This document shows, piece after piece, positions 676 through 9,648 of a stretch of DNA of 64,000 nt. Under the pieces are notes generated by a model. It made no database searches, was not told the DNA's origin, and saw only the letters and a program-made list of their open reading frames with translations. The stretch comes from an uncultured Oscillospiraceae bacterium. Lineage in GTDB: Bacteria; Bacillota; Clostridia; Oscillospirales; Oscillospiraceae. The translations under genes were made by a program, and so were the position numbers. The stretch spans positions 62,001-126,000 of the forward strand of contig CATMVA010000004.1 in the NCBI GenBank assembly GCA_950075865.1, read 5' to 3'. How positions within the stretch are numbered: position 1 is the stretch's first letter; every line of letters begins with the position of its first letter.

Positions 676-1620
676 ATGGTCAATATTCAAAAAGCCGCCG
701 TCATCGGCTGCGGGTTCGTGGGCTCCTCCTCGGCCTTCGCCATGATGCGCTCGGGCATCTTTTCCGAGCTGGTCCTTCTGGACGCCAACCAGGCCAAGGC
801 CGAGGGAGAGGCCATGGACATCGCCCACGGGCTCCCCTTCTCCCGGCCCATGAAGATCTATGCCGGAGGCTATAGCGACCTGCGGGACTGCGCCCTTGTG
901 GTCATCACCGCCGGGGCCAACCAGAAGCCGGGGGAGACCCGGCTGGATCTGGTGAAGAGGAATGTGTCCATTCTGGGCTCCATCATCCCGGAGATCGTGA
1001 AGGTCAACCGGGAAGCCATCCTGCTCATCGTCTCCAACCCGGTGGATATTCTGACCTGGGCGGCCCAGAAGCTTTCCGGCCTGCCCAAAAGCCAGGTGCT
1101 GGGCTCGGGCACCGTGCTGGACACCGCCCGGCTCAAGTACCTGCTGGGAGAGCATCTCAGTGTGGACAGCCGGAGCGTCCACGCCGTCATCATCGGCGAG
1201 CACGGGGACAGCGAGCTGGCGGTGTGGAGCGGAGCCAACGTGTCCGGGGTGGATCTGGACCACTTCTGCGCCCTGTGCGGAGAGGAGGAGCATCGCGCCA
1301 TGATGGAACGCATCTACACCGACGTGCGGGATTCGGCCTATGAGATCATCGAGCGGAAGGGAGCCACCTACTACGGCATTGCCGCCGCCGTGACCCGGAT
1401 CGCCCAGTGCATTGTCCGGGACGAGCACTCGGTACTGCCGGTGTCGGTGAACCTCGGGGGGCTTTACGGCGTGGAGGACCTGTGTATGAGCGTCCCGGCG
1501 GTGGTGGGCCGGCAGGGGGTGGAGAAGGTCCTGGAGATCGAACTGAGCGACGGGGAGTGCGCCGCCTTTCGGAAGTCGGCCGGGACCCTGAAAGAGGTGG
1601 CGGACAGTCTGGGGCTGTAA
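676..1620 (+). CDS. ldh: L-lactate dehydrogenase
   Basis: NAD-dependent enzyme interconverting pyruvate and L-lactate in the cytoplasm at the end of fermentation. The N-terminus carries the Rossmann motif GCGFVGSS. Gln83 in GANQKPGETR is the substrate-specificity position; Gln marks lactate rather than malate dehydrogenase, which has Arg there. The catalytic His is H176 in IGEHGDSE, and the substrate Arg lies in DTARLKY. The ATG at 676 was chosen over one at 655 because AAGGAG lies 10 bases before it. At 314 residues it has normal family length. It stands alone, with a strong hairpin immediately after the stop. Confidence 0.95.
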   Translation: MVNIQKAAVIGCGFVGSSSAFAMMRSGIFSELVLLDANQAKAEGEAMDIAHGLPFSRPMKIYAGGYSDLRDCALVVITAGANQKPGETRLDLVKRNVSILGSIIPEIVKVNREAILLIVSNPVDILTWAAQKLSGLPKSQVLGSGTVLDTARLKYLLGEHLSVDSRSVHAVIIGEHGDSELAVWSGANVSGVDLDHFCALCGEEEHRAMMERIYTDVRDSAYEIIERKGATYYGIAAAVTRIAQCIVRDEHSVLPVSVNLGGLYGVEDLCMSVPAVVGRQGVEKVLEIELSDGECAAFRKSAGTLKEVADSLGL

Positions 1621-1660
1621 AAAACGCGGGGGCCGGTGAAAACACCGGCCCCCGCGTTTT
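1621..1660. terminator. Bidirectional intrinsic terminator
   Basis: Perfect 18-base stem (1621-1638 with 1643-1660) around an AAAA loop, GC-rich in the middle and with A/T runs at both ends. It serves ldh on the plus strand and the convergent lipase-like gene on the minus strand, whose stop codon overlaps it. Confidence 0.95.
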
Positions 1661-2795
1661 ATCCTTTTTTCCTGACTTGCACCGCCGCCGGAGGATCCTC
1701 CCCAGGGCCTTCCAGCAGCTCAGGGAAATTCTTTACCCCCAAGGCTACCAGGGCCATCCCCGTCTGGAACAGGAATTCCTTTGTGTCCGGATCCAACTGG
1801 GACGCGGCCTTCAGAATGGCCGGGATGCTCTCCTGCCACTGGGCACGCAACTGGGCGAGGGTCTCGATATGGGCGGCATCCACCAGAGCGTACAGGGAAT
1901 CCACGAACCGCTCCCGCTCGGCTGTCGTGAGGGAGCTGATCCAGCGGTTCAGGGTCTTATCCAGGTACTGAGCGTCCGGGGTCAGCTCCTCCTGGAGGAG
2001 GAAGTCGTTCCCCTCCACCAGCCAGGAGAAAGGATCGTGCTGCCAAAGGCCCACCCGGTCGCTCTTTACGATCCGGAAATTCTCCTGCTGCTCCAGAAGC
2101 ATCCCCACCAGGGAGGACTGGGGCAGGGTCTTATCCAGCTTGGGCGCGATGGTCTGAAATTCCCCGCTCTGAAGCACGGCCGCCAGAAAGCCCGGCCCAT
2201 CGTGGGAATAGACCCGGACAAGCCGCTCCTGAATCTCCTGGGCGCTGTGGGCCGCGGCATAGACCGCCAGGTTGCCCCCCTTGGAGTGTCCGCCCACCCG
2301 AAGCTCGCCCTTGCAGTGTTTGGCGGCCTGGGCCAGGTACCGCTGGGCCGCCTCCTGGGAGGGGACAGGGTACTGGAAGGCCATATTGAAGTCCTCCTTC
2401 CACCCCACCAGGGTGGAGTCGGTGCCCCGAAAGGCGATATAGCCCCACCGGTCCTCCCACTGGAGGGTCACCGCCGCAAACTGCTTTTCCAGCCCGGCGT
2501 CCATCTGCTGGGTATAGCCCATCACCCGAATATCCCGGAACCTGGGGCTGGCAGCCACGGCGGTAAGGAGCTGCCGGCTGCCGGGAACATCCCAGTGCCG
2601 CTGGAAAAGGCAGCCGAAGTCTTCGGCCCGGAAGAGATCCCCCAGCCTCACACCCCGCCAGTCATAGGCCTCCAGCCGCTCCTCGGGCAGGCGCAGATAG
2701 GCCGCCCAGGAAAGGATCAGGCTGTCCACCCGGTTAAAGGGCAGGCGGTCAAAGTTGGCCAGGGTCTCCTCCGCATATGTGATGATATTGCGCAT
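1659..2795 (-). CDS. Alpha/beta-hydrolase (lipase-like) protein, DUF2974/Mbeg1 family
   Basis: A 378-residue predicted alpha/beta hydrolase. The nucleophile elbow is G-H-S-K-G-G (in VGGHSKGGNLAVYAA), preceded by IAFRGTDSTLVGWKEDF, a pattern typical of lipase-class-3-like folds. These features match the DUF2974 family, whose substrates are unknown. No signal peptide is visible, so the protein is probably cytoplasmic. The ATG at 2795 was chosen because GAGGGGG precedes it; a longer frame to 2918 would cover the neighbouring terminator. The first 30 residues (NIITYAEETLANFDRLPFNRVDS) are characteristic of the family. The gene is monocistronic, between two terminators. Confidence 0.8.
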   Translation of the reverse strand: MRNIITYAEETLANFDRLPFNRVDSLILSWAAYLRLPEERLEAYDWRGVRLGDLFRAEDFGCLFQRHWDVPGSRQLLTAVAASPRFRDIRVMGYTQQMDAGLEKQFAAVTLQWEDRWGYIAFRGTDSTLVGWKEDFNMAFQYPVPSQEAAQRYLAQAAKHCKGELRVGGHSKGGNLAVYAAAHSAQEIQERLVRVYSHDGPGFLAAVLQSGEFQTIAPKLDKTLPQSSLVGMLLEQQENFRIVKSDRVGLWQHDPFSWLVEGNDFLLQEELTPDAQYLDKTLNRWISSLTTAERERFVDSLYALVDAAHIETLAQLRAQWQESIPAILKAASQLDPDTKEFLFQTGMALVALGVKNFPELLEGPGEDPPAAVQVRKKG

Positions 2796-2856
2796 AATGC
2801 TTTCCCCCTCTACCCAGAGTATGCCCGACCCATCCCGGCGGACCGCCCTTCCGCAA

Positions 2857-2884
2857 ACAGGACGGCCCTTTTGGGCCGTCCTGT
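2857..2884 (-). terminator. Intrinsic terminator after the nucleoside phosphorylase gene
   Basis: A 12-base perfect stem (2857-2868 with 2873-2884) and a four-base loop, just beyond the stop codon of the minus-strand phosphorylase gene. The following T-run on the minus strand is short. Confidence 0.75.
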
Positions 2885-2892
2885 CTGATCGG

Positions 2893-3669
2893 TCATTCTT
2901 TTTTCCGGTCTTCCTCAATGAGCAGCTTGAGGGCTTCCACCCCCACCTGTATGGCGGCCGAGAGATCGTGGCTCTCCTCCTGGTCCAGGCCGGCCTCCTC
3001 CCGTTCCTGGTTCCAGATCACATGGAAGCAGGAGCCGCACCGCACCCCCAGGGCGGCGGCGCAGCAGAAGAGGGCGGCCGACTCCATCTCGGAGGCCAGG
3101 ACCCCCAAGCGCTTCCAGGCTTCCCACTTGTAGAGGAGCTCCCCGCTCACCGGCATCCGGCCGGGGGAGTGCTGGCCGTAGAAGGAATCCTTACACTGGA
3201 CCACCCCGGCGTGCCAGGGCTTGCCCAGGTTTTTGGCCGCCCGGATCAAGGCATCCTGCACCGTGTAGTCGCTGACGGCAGGGAACTCCATGGGGGCATA
3301 TTCCCGGCTGGTCCCCTCGTGGCGGACGGCTCCGGTGGCGACAACCACGTCGTCGGCCTTCACCTTCAGGGCGATGCCGCCGCAGGTGCCCACCCGGACA
3401 AAGGTGTCCGCCCCGATGTTGTGGAGCTCTTCCATGGCGATGACCGCGCTGGGCCCGCCGATGCCGGTGGAGCAGACGCTGACCTTCTCCCCCAGCAGGG
3501 TCCCGGTGTAGATGGTGTACTCCCGGTTGGAATGGACAAAATGGGGCTCGTCGAAATATTGGGCAATGACCTCGCACCGGCCAGGGTCGCCGGGCAGGAT
3601 CACATACCGGCCCACATCCCCCTCTTTACATTGAATATGAAACTGTACTTCCCGCTCCTGCTCCTTCAT
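2893..3669 (-). CDS. Uridine phosphorylase-type nucleoside phosphorylase
   Basis: A 258-residue member of the PNP/UDP superfamily, cleaving a nucleoside with phosphate to the free base and ribose-1-phosphate. Visible motifs in order are the phosphate-binding GDPGR near residue 24, RVGTCGG around 85, and the ribose/base segment [10 protein letters not shown] around 190. The E-M-E-S motif and overall order resemble uridine phosphorylase more than purine nucleoside phosphorylase, but substrate cannot be fixed from motifs. The ATG at 3669 has GAGGTGAG before it. The gene has its own promoter, divergent from the pyrophosphatase-like gene, suggesting a salvage role outside an operon. Confidence 0.85.
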
Positions 3670-3687
3670 TTTTCTCACCTCGAAAAT

Positions 3688-3716
3688 ATTATACCATTTT
3701 TCCTTTTCCGCCGCAA
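3688..3716 (-). promoter_or_regulatory. Promoter of the nucleoside phosphorylase gene
   Basis: TTGCGG (3711-3716) and a perfect TATAAT (3688-3693) on the minus strand, spacing 17. Confidence 0.7.
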
Positions 3717-3732
3717 GGGGCGAATATTTCTC

Positions 3733-3761
3733 TTGCATATTTGTCGGATCGTTGCTAATAT
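3733..3761 (+). promoter_or_regulatory. Promoter of the pyrophosphatase-like gene
   Basis: TTGCAT (3733-3738) and TAATAT (3756-3761) on the plus strand with a 17-base spacer, 37 bases before the chosen start codon. Confidence 0.65.
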
Positions 3762-3797
3762 TGTAGTAAACATATGTCCGCAAAGGAGCGTAAAACA

Positions 3798-5906
3798 ATG
3801 CAGAACGCGGAAAACCTTTTCTGGATCGCCTTTGTTGCCGCAGGCGCGGCCATCCTGTTCGCCCTGATCCAAAGCTGGCAGATCCGGAATCTTCCCCGGC
3901 GGCTCCAGGAGGATGACCCTTCCCAGGCCGCCCTCCTCGGCAGCATAAAGACATACTGCCTGCGCCAATACGGTGCCGCGGTCCTGGCCGTGGCCCTGCT
4001 CTTCGGCGGGCTTTGGGGGCTGTCCCGGATCGGTATGACGGACCGGTTCCTCCCCTACGCCTTTCTCTCGGGGAGCCTTCTTCCCATTCTGACCGGCCTT
4101 TTGGGACTATGGGTCTCGGCCATGGCCCAGCTCCGTACCGCCGAGGCGGTGGAGGAGAGCCTGGACAAGGCCCTCAAAACCGCCCTCTCCGCGGGTACTG
4201 TCACCGGCTTTCTGGGCATCGGCCTGGCCCTTTTGGAGCTGACCGCCTGGTTCTTCGTGCTCCGGTATTCCATGGGCTATGAGGCCGCCCGGATCGCCCA
4301 GATCATGCTCTCCTTCGGCCTGGGCGCCGCTTTCCTCTCCCTGTTCTCCCGCATCAGTGTGGGTGTTTTCTCCTCGGGGGCCGATCTGGCCGCCGGCGCC
4401 GCCTCCAAGGGGAGCGTGACCCTCTCTCTGGATCATTTTCACAACCCCGCCGCCATGGCTCGGCTGACCGGAGAGACGGCGGGCGGCAGTTCGGGCCTGA
4501 GCGCCGACCTGTACAGTTCCTTCTCCCTGGCCGTCCTCTGTGCCTTCGCCCTGAGCGGCCCCGCCTTTGCCGGGGAGGGCCTGCTCTGGAGCGGTATGCT
4601 CCTCCCCCTGGCCGTGGCCGCGGCGGGGGTGCTCAGTTCTCTCATCTCGGTCTTCCTCATCCGGGTCCGTGAGGGGGAACCCCTGCTGAACAGCGTCCGT
4701 CTGGCCGGCTTCTGCGCGGCCGGTCTCACCGCCGCTATCGCCGCCCCCCTCACCTTTTTCCTGATGGGCACCTGGGAGCTCTGGTTCTCCGCGGCGGCGG
4801 GCTGTCTGGCCGGCTTCGTCCTCCCCCTCTGGTCCCAGTGGTCGGTCTCGGGCGCCCACAAGCCCATCCAACGCCTGGCCGCTCCTACCGAGACCGACCC
4901 CGCCTCCTCCCTGTTGGCAGGGCTCTCCCTGGGGATGCGCGCCGCCGTCCTCCCCTTTCTTCTGATGGGCGCCGTCCTTCTGTTCGCCTTTCTGTCTGCC
5001 GGCGGATCCCTGGTCCTTCCCCTCTATGAGGCCTCCTACGCCAAGGGAGTCTATGGCGTGGCCCTGTGCGCCGTAGGCTTCCTCTCCACCGCCGCCATGA
5101 CCCTGAGTCTGAGCGCCTGCGGCAGCGTCACCGGTAACGCCCTGGGTCTGATCCTCATGTCTGACCGGGACAACGGTGCCAAGGCCCGGGCCACCCTGCT
5201 CAGCGATCTGGGGGCCTCGACCGTTTCGGTGGGCAAAGCCCTGTCTGGAACCGGCTCCGCTCTGACTGCCATGACCCTTCTCATCTTCTGGGTCATCCTC
5301 CTGCACCGGGAGAACGCCCTGCCCGGGGAGGCCCTGATCTCCCCCCAGCTTATGACCGGGCTGCTGCTGGGGGCCCTTCTGGCCTTCCTGTTCGCCTCGC
5401 TGATCCTCTCGGCGGTCCAGCGGACCGGCCGTACGGCCACCAAGGAGCTCCGCCAGCAGCTGCGGACCACCAAGGGCATCCTGTCCGGCAAAACCCTTCC
5501 CGACCACACCAGATGCACCGCCGCCTGCGCCAATGCCACACTCTGGAATATCCTCCTGCCCCTTCTGCTGGCCCTGGCCGTCCTCCCTCTGACCGGCGTT
5601 CTCCTGGGGCCCGCCGGAGCCGCCGGCCTGCTGATAGGCCTGATCGCCGCCGGCCTTGCCCTCTCGGTCTTCCTCACTGGCGCCGGCAGCATCTGGAACA
5701 ATGTCCGCCGGCTGCTCCGCGCCGACCCCCACGCCGACGAGGAGTCCGACCGCACCAGGGCCGCCGCCCTCAGCGACACGGTGGGCGCCCCCCTCCGGAA
5801 CGCCGCGGGCCCCTCTCTCACCAGTCTCATCAAGTTGTGCGCCGCCCTGGCGGTGGCTCTGTCCACCCTGATGATCCAGTGGAACCTGCCCGCCCTTCTG
5901 GGCTGA
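3798..5906 (+). CDS. Degenerate membrane pyrophosphatase homologue (HppA-like, predicted inactive)
   Basis: A 702-residue, highly hydrophobic protein with about 15-16 membrane segments, the length and pattern of membrane H+/Na+-translocating pyrophosphatase. Homology is clear without gaps over the core: [14 protein letters not shown] and HNPAAMAR near 173-222, [16 protein letters not shown] near 375, and [15 protein letters not shown] near 660. The catalytic residues are mostly gone. In the canonical DNVGDNVGD the three Asp are R222, E226 and G230. In the signature DVGADLVGKVE the first Asp (196) and the Lys survive but the second Asp and Glu are lost. The late DTVGDPFKD reads DTVGAPLRN. The Asp of SDNAGG is Gly446 and the Asn of GNTT is Ala473. 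The ATG at 3798 has AAGGAG 10 bases upstream. The frame is intact, so it is maintained, but pyrophosphate hydrolysis is not expected. Confidence 0.85.
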
Positions 5907-5916
5907 TTTTTCCATG

Positions 5917-5951
5917 AAAAAAGCCCTCCGTCACTTGACGGCGGGCTTTTT
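5917..5951. terminator. Bidirectional terminator
   Basis: Stem of AAAAAGCCC/GGGCTTTTT plus CCGTC/GACGG with small mismatches. It lies between the convergent pyrophosphatase-like gene and amidase gene and has A/T tracts on both sides. Confidence 0.85.
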
Positions 5952-7160: not shown

Positions 7161-7189
7161 ATTCTACTCCATTCGACAAAATCCGTCAA
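7161..7189 (-). promoter_or_regulatory. Promoter of the amidase gene
   Basis: TTGACG (7184-7189) and TAGAAT (7161-7166) on the minus strand, spacing 17. Confidence 0.7.
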
Positions 7190-7217
7190 TGCCCCAGCTC
7201 CTGAGAATTTATGGAAA

Positions 7218-7243
7218 AGGCCCTGCCGCAGTCGGCAGGGCCC
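7218..7243 (-). terminator. Intrinsic terminator after the SDR gene
   Basis: GGCCCTGCCG / CGGCAGGGCC stem with a short loop, downstream of the minus-strand SDR stop, followed on that strand by CTTTTCC. Confidence 0.8.
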
Positions 7244-7250
7244 TATTTAT

Positions 7251-8018
7251 TCACATGCTCCGGAGCCTGTCCCACAGGGCCATGACCGCCGCCGTGGGCA
7301 GGACCTTGCTCCCCACCCGGAGGAGGGCTGACGCCGGATTGCAGGCGGCCACCGCGCCGCCACGGCGGCTCACCGTCAGGGACCAGGCCGACACCGCCTC
7401 GGGCCGCATGGCAAAGGGGGTATGGCGCACCGCCTCCGGGTTGGCGGTATCCCTGGCCACCGCCATAAACTCGGTCTTGACCCAAGTGGGGCATACCGCC
7501 GTCACTGTGATCCCCCGGCCTTTGAGCTCCACCCCCAGAGCCCGGGCGTAATGGAGCAGAAAGGCCTTAGTGGCCGCGTACAGGTTCAGCCCCGGCAGTG
7601 GCTGGAACCCGGCGCAGGAGGCGATCTCCAGAATGTGGCTCCCCCGTCTCATCCAGGGGATGCACAGCCGGGTCACCTCCACCGCCGCATGGCAGTTGAG
7701 CTCGATCATGTCCCCGGTCTCCTCCCCCGTCAGGTCCTCAGCCCGGCCAAACTTGCCGAAGCCGGCGGCGCAGACCAAGTATTGCACCAGGGGCCGCTCC
7801 TCCTCCAGCAGGTCCCGCAGGAGGGTCATGCTCTCCTCCCCCGTCAGGTCCAGGGCCAGGATCCGGCAAGGTTTTTCCAGGCTGTCGGCCAACTGGGTCA
7901 GCCGCTCCTCCCGCCGGGCGATGAGCCAAAGCTCTTCCACCTCGCCGCTTTTGTCCAACCGTTTGGCATAGGCCCTCCCCAGCCCTGAGGACGCTCCGGT
8001 CACGATCCCCACCCGCAT
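7251..8018 (-). CDS. Short-chain dehydrogenase/reductase
   Basis: A 255-residue classical SDR oxidoreductase. The cofactor motif GASSGLG is at residues 8-14 and an Arg pair at LIARREERL suggests NADP(H). The NAG-equivalent CAAGFG, the catalytic Ser in IASCAGF and Y-A-A-T-K are all present. The C-terminal 60 residues (RRGGAVAACNPASALLRVG) resemble the DltE/YqjQ-type subgroup often annotated as SDR of unknown substrate. The ATG at 8018 was preferred over one at 8051: AAGGGTGG lies before it, whereas an upstream start would sit almost at the predicted transcription start. It is a single-gene unit. Confidence 0.88.
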   Translation of the reverse strand: MRVGIVTGASSGLGRAYAKRLDKSGEVEELWLIARREERLTQLADSLEKPCRILALDLTGEESMTLLRDLLEEERPLVQYLVCAAGFGKFGRAEDLTGEETGDMIELNCHAAVEVTRLCIPWMRRGSHILEIASCAGFQPLPGLNLYAATKAFLLHYARALGVELKGRGITVTAVCPTWVKTEFMAVARDTANPEAVRHTPFAMRPEAVSAWSLTVSRRGGAVAACNPASALLRVGSKVLPTAAVMALWDRLRSM

Positions 8019-8060
8019 GCGAACCACCCTTTCCGTTTTTGATTTTGACATAGTATATCC

Positions 8061-8089
8061 ATTCTACCATCTTCTCTTCCCCGGTACAA
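8061..8089 (-). promoter_or_regulatory. Promoter of the SDR gene
   Basis: TTGTAC (8084-8089) and TAGAAT (8061-8066), spacing 17, minus strand. Confidence 0.55.
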
Positions 8090-8136
8090 GTAAAATCAAA
8101 GGCAGCCCCCTTTTCCAAGACAATTTCATCCCGGCA

Positions 8137-8165
8137 TTGCTTTTTTGGGCGGAATGCGATACAAT
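8137..8165 (+). promoter_or_regulatory. Promoter of the apbE operon
   Basis: TTGCTT (8137-8142) and TACAAT (8160-8165) with a 17-base spacer, 36 bases ahead of the TTG start of the ApbE gene. Confidence 0.7.
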
Positions 8166-8201
8166 AAGAAAAACCATTTTTTTGACAAAGGTGGCATTCC
8201 C

Positions 8202-9242
8202 TTGAAACGACCCTTCCTTCTGGCCTTGGCCTGTGCCCTTCTGCTTACGGGCTGCACCGGGCCGGCCCAGCCTACACACACCCCGACCTCCGATCCCACA
8301 GCCGAGTCCACCACCTTCGCCATGGACACTGTGATGACCTTCAGGCTCTATGGCGGCACCGAGGAGGACCTGACCGCCGTCACCTCCCGGATCCTCTCCC
8401 TGGAACAGGACCTGTCCGTGACCCTGGAGGACAGCCAGGTCTATGCCCTGAACCACAGCGGCGGGGAGCCGGTGACCGCGGGGGAGGACTTCCTCGCCCT
8501 CCTGGCTCTGGCCAAAGAGCTGGGGAACCGGACAGGGGGTGCCCTGGACGTGACCATGTATCCGGTGGTGAAGGCCTGGGGCTTCACCACCAGCGAGTAC
8601 CATATCCCGGACGAGGATACTTTGTCCGCTCTACTGGCCAATGTGGATTACACCTCCGTCACGGTGGAGGGGGATCAGGTCACCCTGCCGGCGAAGATGG
8701 AGCTGGACCTGGGCGCCATCGCCAAGGGCTACGCCGGCGAGATGGCCGCCAACCTTCTTCGGGAGCGGGGAGTGACCTCGGCGATCCTCAACCTGGGAGG
8801 CAACGTCCAGACCGTGGGCAGCAAGGCGGATGGCTCGCCCTGGAGGATCGGCGTCCAGGACCCCCAGCAGACCACCGGCGGCTATCTGGGCGTTCTGGAG
8901 ATCAGGGACCAGGCCATGGTGACCTCAGGGGGCTATGAGCGGTACTTTGAGGAGGACGGGGTGCGTTACTGGCACATCATGGACCCCCACACCGGCGCCC
9001 CCGCCCGGAGCGGTCTGGTCTCGGTCACCATCGTGGGGGATAAGGGTGGGCTCTGCGACGGCCTGTCCACCTCCCTCTTCGTCCTGGGACGGGAGAAAGC
9101 ACTGGACTACTGGCGCACTTACGGCGGCTTTGAGGCCATCCTCATTGACGACCAGAACAACATCTGGGTCACCGGGGGGCTGAAGAACAACTTCACCCTT
9201 GTCGCGGACAGCCCCTATACCCTGAACATCGTGGAGGAATAG
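8202..9242 (+). CDS. apbE: FAD:protein FMN transferase (ApbE), lipoprotein
   Basis: A 346-residue lipoprotein that transfers FMN from FAD to a Ser/Thr of target proteins outside the cytoplasmic membrane. The signal peptide ends in the lipobox LLTGC. Family motifs follow: MDTVMTFRLYG near residue 45, ELDLGAIAKGYA, LNLGGNVQ, HIMDPHTGAPAR and the Mg-binding DGLSTSLFVLG near 290. The start is TTG at 8202 with AAAGGTGG upstream; the longer ATG frame has no good site and would bury the signal peptide. It starts a tight three-gene run with a NusG-II protein (1-base gap) and a Gx-type membrane protein. Predicted substrates in this window are the two FMN-bind domains of the LysM flavoprotein at 34-38 kb. 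Confidence 0.95.
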   Translation: MKRPFLLALACALLLTGCTGPAQPTHTPTSDPTAESTTFAMDTVMTFRLYGGTEEDLTAVTSRILSLEQDLSVTLEDSQVYALNHSGGEPVTAGEDFLALLALAKELGNRTGGALDVTMYPVVKAWGFTTSEYHIPDEDTLSALLANVDYTSVTVEGDQVTLPAKMELDLGAIAKGYAGEMAANLLRERGVTSAILNLGGNVQTVGSKADGSPWRIGVQDPQQTTGGYLGVLEIRDQAMVTSGGYERYFEEDGVRYWHIMDPHTGAPARSGLVSVTIVGDKGGLCDGLSTSLFVLGREKALDYWRTYGGFEAILIDDQNNIWVTGGLKNNFTLVADSPYTLNIVEE

Positions 9243-9243
9243 C

Positions 9244-9648
9244 ATGAATATCAAATCCAACAAATTCTGGGTGATCGTCATCGCCGCCGTGCTGGCCCTG
9301 TGCCTGGTCGCCGTCGGGATCTGGACCTGGTGGAGGAACAGTCAGCCTGAAGAGGAGGGCCTCATCGCCGTGGTCCGGCTGGACGGCCGGATCGTGGCCG
9401 CCGTGGACCTGAACAAGGTGACCGAAAATTACACCCAGACCTTCTCCGGCGAGAGCGGCAACTCCAACACGGTGGAGTTCGCCCCCGGTCAGGTCCGGGT
9501 CCATGACGCCACCTGTCCCGACCAGATCTGCGTCAGCCAGGGCTGGGCCGACAGGACCACCTTGCTCCCCATCGCCTGCCTGCCCAATTCCCTTATCGTC
9601 GAGGTCGCCGCCGCCCAGGATCTGGGACTGGACTCCATCTCGAGGTAA
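9244..9648 (+). CDS. Membrane-anchored NusG domain II protein
   Basis: A 134-residue protein with one N-terminal membrane helix (residues 8-28) and an extracytoplasmic domain of the NusG domain II type. It includes the Cys pair in HDATCPDQICVSQGW and a third Cys in PIACLPNSL. Such proteins recur beside ApbE and Gx-transporter genes in Firmicutes and, as I recall, in extracellular electron transfer loci, where their biochemical role is not settled. It begins one base after the apbE stop, so translation is probably coupled. The domain name reflects fold similarity only; nothing suggests a role in transcription. Confidence 0.82.
   Translation: MNIKSNKFWVIVIAAVLALCLVAVGIWTWWRNSQPEEEGLIAVVRLDGRIVAAVDLNKVTENYTQTFSGESGNSNTVEFAPGQVRVHDATCPDQICVSQGWADRTTLLPIACLPNSLIVEVAAAQDLGLDSISR

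What the first reader, a model, noticed from the sequence alone, without database searches (positions are those of the whole stretch)
3798..5906. Full-length membrane pyrophosphatase homologue stripped of its catalytic residues
Direct observation: the protein aligns with HppA without gaps through [14 protein letters not shown] to SADLYSSF and at both later catalytic regions, keeping structural glycines and helix pattern. The three Asp of DNVGDNVGD are Arg, Glu and Gly (R222, E226, G230), the DTVGDPFKD motif reads DTVGAPLRN (A664, R667, N668), the SDNAGG Asp is Gly446 and GNTT Asn is Ala473. Knowledge of the family says these residues bind Mg-pyrophosphate and drive ion pumping. Inference: this is a maintained pseudoenzyme, or a channel, sensor or carrier built on the M-PPase fold. 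Automated annotation would wrongly call it a sodium-translocating pyrophosphatase. It has its own promoter and no frame damage.
Basis: partly seen in the sequence, partly recalled or inferred. Interest (0 to 1): 0.82.

Follow-up and report, generated by a model that had tools for sequence, protein, structure and literature searches.

The report
Dead ion pump kept by selection
In a group of bacteria related to the gut genus Flavonifractor, a pyrophosphate-driven ion pump has lost its active site at its original place in the genome, yet the intact protein is still kept by natural selection, which points to a job that does not need the pump's chemistry.

Summary
Window 3798-5906(+) encodes a 702-residue, full-length homologue of the membrane pyrophosphatase HppA (PF03030, 392 bits). 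It keeps 3 of 16 catalytic-site residues; both water-activating aspartates are gone. It is not a one-off: 7 of the 16 genomes held for this genus carry such a protein (1-3 of 16 site residues). All seven lie divergent from uridine phosphorylase, where the genus's live enzymes lie, so it is the orthologue gone dead in place, not a duplicate. It is not a pseudogene: NG86 dN/dS is 0.28-0.36 in four dead pairs (four live pairs 0.07-0.15), and a codon model rejects neutrality on the window's own branch. In two dead pairs constraint is lifted mainly from the catalytic core (0.34-0.54, live 0.03-0.09), while cytosolic loops stay about as constrained as in live enzymes (0.13-0.17, live 0.06-0.22). Soluble pyrophosphatase genes were found in 6 of the 7 genomes. 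No full-length dead copy was seen outside the genus in sampled family and phylum genomes, within stated limits. Best reading: a maintained membrane pseudoenzyme, probably a scaffold or regulator acting through its cytosolic face. The function is inferred.

The parts
3798..5906 (+). Catalytically dead HppA (membrane pyrophosphatase) orthologue, 702 aa
3782..3788 (+). Ribosome-binding site AAAGGAG, 9 nt before ATG 3798
   Evidence: read
3733..3761 (+). Weak promoter-like pair TTGCAT-17-TAATAT (7/12), at the position of the TTGAAA-17-TAAAAT type promoter of relatives
   Evidence: my reading beside; below threshold; weak
4461..4487 (+). Former DNVGDNVGD Mg-PPi motif: R222, E226, G230 (G230 = water-activating D6.43, by counting from D6.50)
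   Evidence: role of D6.43 from PMC10897367 passages
4515..4517 (+). Former ion-gate glutamate 6.53, now S240
5133..5135 (+). Former SDNAGG aspartate, now G446
5214..5216 (+). Former GNTT asparagine, now A473
5697..5711 (+). Former AWDNAKK site: N634, R637, R638
5775..5801 (+). Former DTVGDPFKD motif: D660 kept; A664, R667, N668 (N668 = water-activating D16.39, by counting from K16.50)
5927..5945 (+). Terminator-like hairpin with T run after the gene
2893..3669 (-). Uridine phosphorylase (udp), divergent neighbour; synteny anchor for live and dead hppA
   Evidence: TIGR01718 309.7 bits over cut-off 280.3; synteny

Best explanation
The gene is the genus's hppA orthologue, which lost the PPi site, the water-activating pair and the gate glutamate in place, possibly once in an ancestor of seven related species (loss shown by sequence; single origin not shown). 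PPi is removed by a soluble pyrophosphatase, so catalysis became dispensable (gene presence shown, consequence inferred). The protein is still kept as an intact polytopic membrane protein under purifying selection (shown). In the subclade where it can be measured, selection now acts mostly on the cytosolic loops and the membrane scaffold rather than on the catalytic helix bundle (shown for two species pairs). I infer that it works as a non-catalytic membrane scaffold or regulator: the old pump fold presents its cytosolic loops to a partner protein or ligand, in the manner of rhomboid-derived pseudoproteases. The partner is unknown.
For: Site loss: 1-3 of 16 site residues in 7 of 7 dead proteins, 16 of 16 in the 6 live rows shown. 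Core acidic residues fall from 11 to 3-4 in 7 of 7, while core Lys/Arg stay 4-6. Same locus: udp (83-89% identical to the window's) divergent from hppA in all 7 dead and in the 8 live genomes whose contig covers it, about 5 kb apart in G010; G013 not assessable. Not a duplicate: one PF03030 match in G000, G001, G007, G008, G011 and G014; G012 also has a live copy of another subfamily. Maintenance: NG86 dN/dS 0.33 (95% 0.27-0.40) and 0.28 (0.23-0.33) in the two closest dead pairs; omega=1 on the G000 branch rejected with 2dlnL 68-100 under four length bounds, 806 for the four-species subclade. Constraint shift: core 0.54/0.34 against 0.03-0.09 in four live pairs; cytosolic loops 0.17/0.13 against 0.06-0.22 live; cytosolic loops more conserved than core, Fisher p 0.0006 and 0.0002. 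Soluble PPase: family I domain in G001, G007, G011, G014; DHHA2 (family II type) in G000, G012; none found in G008, 67% complete.
Against: No partner, structure or assay. The loop signal comes from two pairs of one subclade; in G000 itself the cytosolic loops are the part least like live enzymes (29% against 43-44% in helices), and G000 has no close relative to measure. Region borders were set by me from hydropathy and family topology, not from a structure. dN/dS is about 2-5 times that of live pairs, so part of the protein is relaxed; control genes also vary (FtsZ up to 0.27 in one live pair, Udp 0.06-0.17). Distant pairs give higher NG86 ratios (G000-G012b 0.61, G000-G011 0.52), probably through saturation. 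The G000 omega is not identifiable (0.03-0.31 by length bound) and G012b reaches 0.73 under the tightest bound. The window's promoter is poor.
Confidence: 0.5

Rival explanations
1. A PPi-independent channel or carrier built on the pump fold: the bundle, freed from Mg-PPi, now passes an ion or an anion down its gradient.
For: The core keeps 26-41 polar residues and 4-6 Lys/Arg while acidic residues drop from 11 to 3-4, so its net charge turns from about -6 to +1 to +3 in all 7. Arg242 (mung bean numbering) is kept in 5 of 7 and Lys 16.50 in 4 of 7.
Against: The core is, with the luminal loops, the least constrained part (core omega 0.34-0.54, luminal loops 0.43-0.44), the reverse of what a transport path needs. 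Gate Glu 6.53 is lost in 6 of 7 and Asp 6.50 in 5 of 7. The charged positions differ between lineages.
Confidence: 0.2
2. A gene on its way out: catalysis was lost, most constraint is gone, and what remains is weak selection (for example against toxic misfolding) that will end in pseudogenes.
For: dN/dS raised about 2-5 fold; very fast divergence (G000 against G012b 32% protein identity while Udp is 85%); core constraint erased; G012b more eroded (110.6 bits; omega up to 0.73 under a tight bound); weak promoter in G000.
Against: All 7 of 7 frames are intact over about 700 codons, although shared substitutions suggest that the loss precedes the split of four species with pairwise dS 0.6-1.1. 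Cytosolic loops are about as constrained as in live enzymes. A 10/12 promoter is retained in 5 of 7 dead genes. Real hppA decay elsewhere shows stops and fragments (G546, G613, G660).
Confidence: 0.22
3. Still a pyrophosphatase with a rebuilt active site.
For: Some site residues remain (D196, K204, D660 in G000) and homology is full length.
Against: Only D196, E226 and D237 are acidic in the G000 core helices as I drew them, against 11 in live enzymes; no dead protein keeps both water-activating Asp, two keep one; core constraint is strongly relaxed.
Confidence: 0.03
4. Plain pseudogene or assembly artefact.
For: Active site lost; the named dead records are metagenome assemblies.
Against: omega=1 rejected on the four dead branch classes tested one by one (the stem was not tested alone); intact frames in 7 genomes, the named ones from at least three sequencing projects by their titles; conserved gene neighbourhood.
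Confidence: 0.02

Closest known systems
Membrane pyrophosphatase HppA, sodium-translocating pyrophosphatase models of NCBIfam (PF03030; NF001954, NF001960)
   Same: Full-length homology; 38-41% identity to the 8 live orthologues at the same locus; glycines and prolines largely kept (28 of 46 and 4 of 7 live-invariant positions in G000)
   Different: Mg-PPi site, both water-activating aspartates and ion-gate Glu gone; below the NCBIfam equivalog cut-offs, as are the five other dead proteins scanned (G014 not scanned)
Polytopic membrane pseudoenzymes such as iRhoms (rhomboid pseudoproteases; PMC3149277, only the start of the abstract in the listing)
   Same: A membrane enzyme fold kept without its catalytic residues
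   Different: iRhoms exist beside active rhomboids (recalled); here 6 of 7 genomes show no live HppA. The fold is a primary ion pump, not a protease; no regulatory target is known here

Membership tests
Membrane pyrophosphatase (ion-pumping HppA) | Full-length sequence homology | tested here: met
   PF03030 392.4 bits, positions 3-643/645; PDB chains, best E 1.7e-61
Membrane pyrophosphatase (ion-pumping HppA) | Conserved Asp/Asn/Lys that bind Mg-PPi | tested here: not met
   3 of 16 in G000, 1-3 of 16 in all 7 dead proteins, 16 of 16 in 6 live rows; requirement from PMC10897367 passages; the list of 16 is partly recalled
Membrane pyrophosphatase (ion-pumping HppA) | Asp pair 6.43/16.39 that activates water | tested here: not met
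   G230 and N668; roles from passages
Membrane pyrophosphatase (ion-pumping HppA) | Ion gate with semi-conserved Glu on helix 6 | tested here: not met
   S240 in place of Glu 6.53; R185, D237 and K679 kept
Membrane pyrophosphatase (ion-pumping HppA) | Curated NCBIfam equivalog cut-off | tested here: not met
   399.7 against 546; a live relative passes with 959.6 against 894
Membrane pyrophosphatase (ion-pumping HppA) | 16 transmembrane helices, homodimer | tested here: inconclusive
   Hydropathy broadly like a live enzyme but helices not resolved; structure prediction switched off
Membrane pyrophosphatase (ion-pumping HppA) | PPi hydrolysis coupled to Na+ or H+ transport | not testable with these tools
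   needs an assay
Maintained pseudoenzyme | Catalytic residues lost while the chain stays homologous and intact | tested here: met
Maintained pseudoenzyme | Purifying selection after the loss | tested here: met
Maintained pseudoenzyme | A non-catalytic function | not testable with these tools
   only the pattern of constraint hints at one
Pseudogene | Broken frame or neutral evolution | tested here: not met
   open frames in 7 of 7; omega=1 rejected

The most novel reading that the evidence does not exclude
Membrane pyrophosphatases have a second, non-catalytic job carried by their cytosolic loops. In this clade pumping and hydrolysis were lost and that job alone remained, so the dead proteins are a natural separation-of-function experiment that also applies to live HppA.
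Probability: 0.25. Interest if true: 0.82.

Novelty: new variant of a known kind. Interest (0 to 1): 0.6.

Why it matters
Membrane pyrophosphatases are primary ion pumps with an almost invariant active site. A set of species that keeps the protein under selection without that site would show that the fold is useful without PPi. It offers a direct test of what the cytosolic loops do, and warns that Pfam-level annotation overstates PPi-driven energy conservation in these bacteria. I found no earlier report in the open-access library searched; most subscription papers are not held there.

Tried and rejected
A relative search in named genomes with the window protein found none; the neighbour udp was used as anchor instead and brought the best 80 of 237 confirmed loci. 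No dead HppA beyond five already known stood out there; this was judged by profile score, residues were not scored one by one, and contig-edge fragments were left aside. A first neighbour table from longest-ORF calling was unreliable in this GC-rich DNA and was replaced by tblastn. A first species tree used an antisense frame of rpoB by mistake and was redone with the right frame. The first dN/dS script stopped with an error after part of its pairs; its YN00 mode failed for many pairs; the main omegas quoted come. The codon-model run stopped at its iteration limit and was redone, which prints no convergence message; some branch lengths there sit at their bound.

G324's weak PF03030 match (E 2.5e-4) gave no hit with a profile of this family and reads like a polysaccharide flippase (my reading); dropped. 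Plain pseudogene, assembly artefact and second-copy explanations were considered and rejected for the reasons given. Two checks on a single origin are weak: HppA long branches attract each other, and the species tree does not resolve whether the seven form one clade (AU p 0.385).

Full report
WHAT IS THERE. Window 3798-5906(+) holds an intact 702-codon frame with a ribosome-binding site 9 nt upstream and a terminator-like hairpin after it. The protein matches PF03030 over its whole length (392.4 bits) and solved membrane pyrophosphatases (best E 1.7e-61). Against mung bean H+-PPase the first catalytic region aligns without gaps, and the later motifs line up clearly. Of 16 site residues it keeps 3. 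The list and mung bean numbering are partly recalled; the general role of Asp, Asn and Lys and of the pair D6.43/D16.39 comes from passages of PMC10897367 and PMC6882861. The pair that activates the attacking water is Gly230 and Asn668 (by counting from D6.50 and K16.50), and the helix-6 gate glutamate is Ser240.

IT IS A SET, NOT A SINGLE ODDITY. All 16 genomes held for the genus have a homologue. In 7 of 16 (G000, G001, G007, G008, G011, G012, G014) a copy is full length but divergent and keeps 1-3 of the 16 residues; the six live rows shown keep 16 of 16. Among the 80 best of 237 confirmed named udp loci no further dead copy stood out by score.

HOW FAR IT REACHES. In 400 sampled genomes of the family (277 with a match), every genome outside the genus whose best match was weaker than 1e-120 was looked at: 17, one (G033). 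All were partial matches, several at contig edges, or the spurious one in G324. Genomes with best matches between about 1e-120 and 1e-165 were not all followed, and a weak second copy behind a strong first one would be missed in that sample. In 398 sampled genomes of the phylum (329 with a match) I followed 43: 40 multi-match genomes picked from the table and three weak ones. The weakest full-length match there had 585.7 bits, against 392 for the window. So I know of no full-length dead copy outside the genus, within these limits.

IT DIED IN PLACE. In all 7 dead genomes, and in the 8 live genomes whose contig covers the spot, hppA lies divergent from a uridine phosphorylase that is 83-89% identical to the window's (about 5 kb away in G010, about 1 kb in G009 and in G004, closer in the others), often with lactate dehydrogenase and an ArsR-like gene (my reading, not searched) nearby. 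G013 is split by contig ends and not assessable. The dead genes are therefore orthologues, not spare duplicates. Six of the seven genomes show no other PF03030 copy (67-94% complete); G012 has a second, live-type copy of another subfamily. A species tree of four genes puts the dead set in two groups, (G000, G012) and (G011, ((G001, G014), (G007, G008))). One clade is not rejected (AU p 0.385) but not shown. The HppA tree joins all seven with 99/99 support, but on long branches.

IT IS NOT A PSEUDOGENE. Seven of seven frames are open over about 700 codons. In the two closest dead pairs NG86 dN/dS is 0.33 (0.27-0.40) and 0.28 (0.23-0.33); across four dead pairs 0.28-0.36, against 0.07-0.15 in four live pairs. 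Control genes in the same pairs gave 0.06-0.17 (Udp) and 0.01-0.27 (FtsZ), so the method scatters. More distant dead pairs give higher ratios, up to 0.61 for G000-G012b, where dS is near saturation. The G000 omega itself is not identifiable because the branch is saturated. A neutral simulation without indels, at distances I set, expects about 3-7 stops per gene; the fraction of 300 runs with none was 0.05 (G007), 0 (G001), 0.06 (G000) and 0.003 (G012b). Real decay of hppA exists in the phylum and looks different: fragments, most with stops, in G546, G613 and G660.

WHERE THE CONSTRAINT WENT. In live enzymes the six-helix core is the most conserved part (97% in the genus against 83% elsewhere); in the four-species dead subclade both are 58-59%. 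By region, the two dead pairs have core omega 0.54 and 0.34 (four live pairs 0.03-0.09), outer helices 0.27 and 0.32 (live 0.14-0.25), luminal loops 0.44 and 0.43 (live 0.14-0.35) and cytosolic loops 0.17 and 0.13 (live 0.06-0.22). Core acidic residues drop from 11 to 3-4 in all seven while Lys/Arg stay at 4-6. Glycine and proline positions are kept best. So the chemistry is gone, the scaffold remains, and in that subclade the cytosolic face is still guarded. Region borders are mine, from hydropathy and known topology. For G000 the within-lineage pattern cannot be measured, and its loops are the part least like live enzymes.

WHY CATALYSIS COULD GO. Family I soluble pyrophosphatase is present in G001, G007, G011 and G014 and in 7 of the 9 live genomes. 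G000 and G012, and live G013, have a DHHA2 protein of family II type instead (only the G000 protein was read). No soluble enzyme was found in dead G008 (67% complete) or live G005 (77%). The soluble enzyme would cover PPi removal; what the lineage lost is PPi-driven ion pumping (inference).

PROMOTERS. Five dead genes keep a TTGAAA-17-TAAAAT/TAGAAT promoter (10/12), a site also found in live G005; 2-9 of 200 mononucleotide shuffles reach the score in these six. The other live genes examined score 9/12, which shuffles reach often (40-127 of 200). G012b has 9/12 (72 of 200). G000 has only a 7/12 pair at that place by my reading, and the scan lists none.

INTERPRETATION. That it is dead, in place and maintained is shown by sequence (about 0.9). 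That it now acts as a scaffold or regulator through its cytosolic face is inference (about 0.4). A channel or carrier is less likely because the core is poorly constrained and the gate is not conserved. Slow decay remains a serious rival, above all for G000 and G012b. Searches of the open-access library found no report of a catalytically dead membrane pyrophosphatase. Passages of three papers were seen (PMC11210485, PMC10897367, PMC6882861); for the rest only listings.

Noticed in passing
L038 (G012:C342) 1506-3767 and L040 (G013:C3) 7185-9392: Two genus members carry a second, catalytically complete HppA of a distant subfamily (29% and 27% identical to the window protein); in G012 it coexists with the dead one.
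   Followed up: partly
L213 (G000), 1483-3150 minus; also L212 (G013) and L214 (G012): Three genus members have a DHHA2-domain protein of family II pyrophosphatase type (open frames 572-594 aa) and no detectable family I enzyme, an apparent swap of soluble pyrophosphatase type inside the genus.
   Followed up: partly
G546:C1:2107068-2109205, G613:C4:92551-92890, G660:C1:2422031-2422222: Fragments of hppA, most with in-frame stops: ordinary hppA pseudogenes elsewhere in the phylum, useful as contrast.
   Followed up: no
L096, L109, L123, L128, L130, L134 (Intestinimonas-named loci): The uridine phosphorylase is present with no hppA in the held flank, suggesting hppA loss or relocation in Intestinimonas; some flanks are cut short by contig ends.
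   Followed up: no
window 4107-5915 minus: A 602-aa antisense ORF runs through most of the hppA gene; most likely a mechanical result of high third-position G+C.
   Followed up: no
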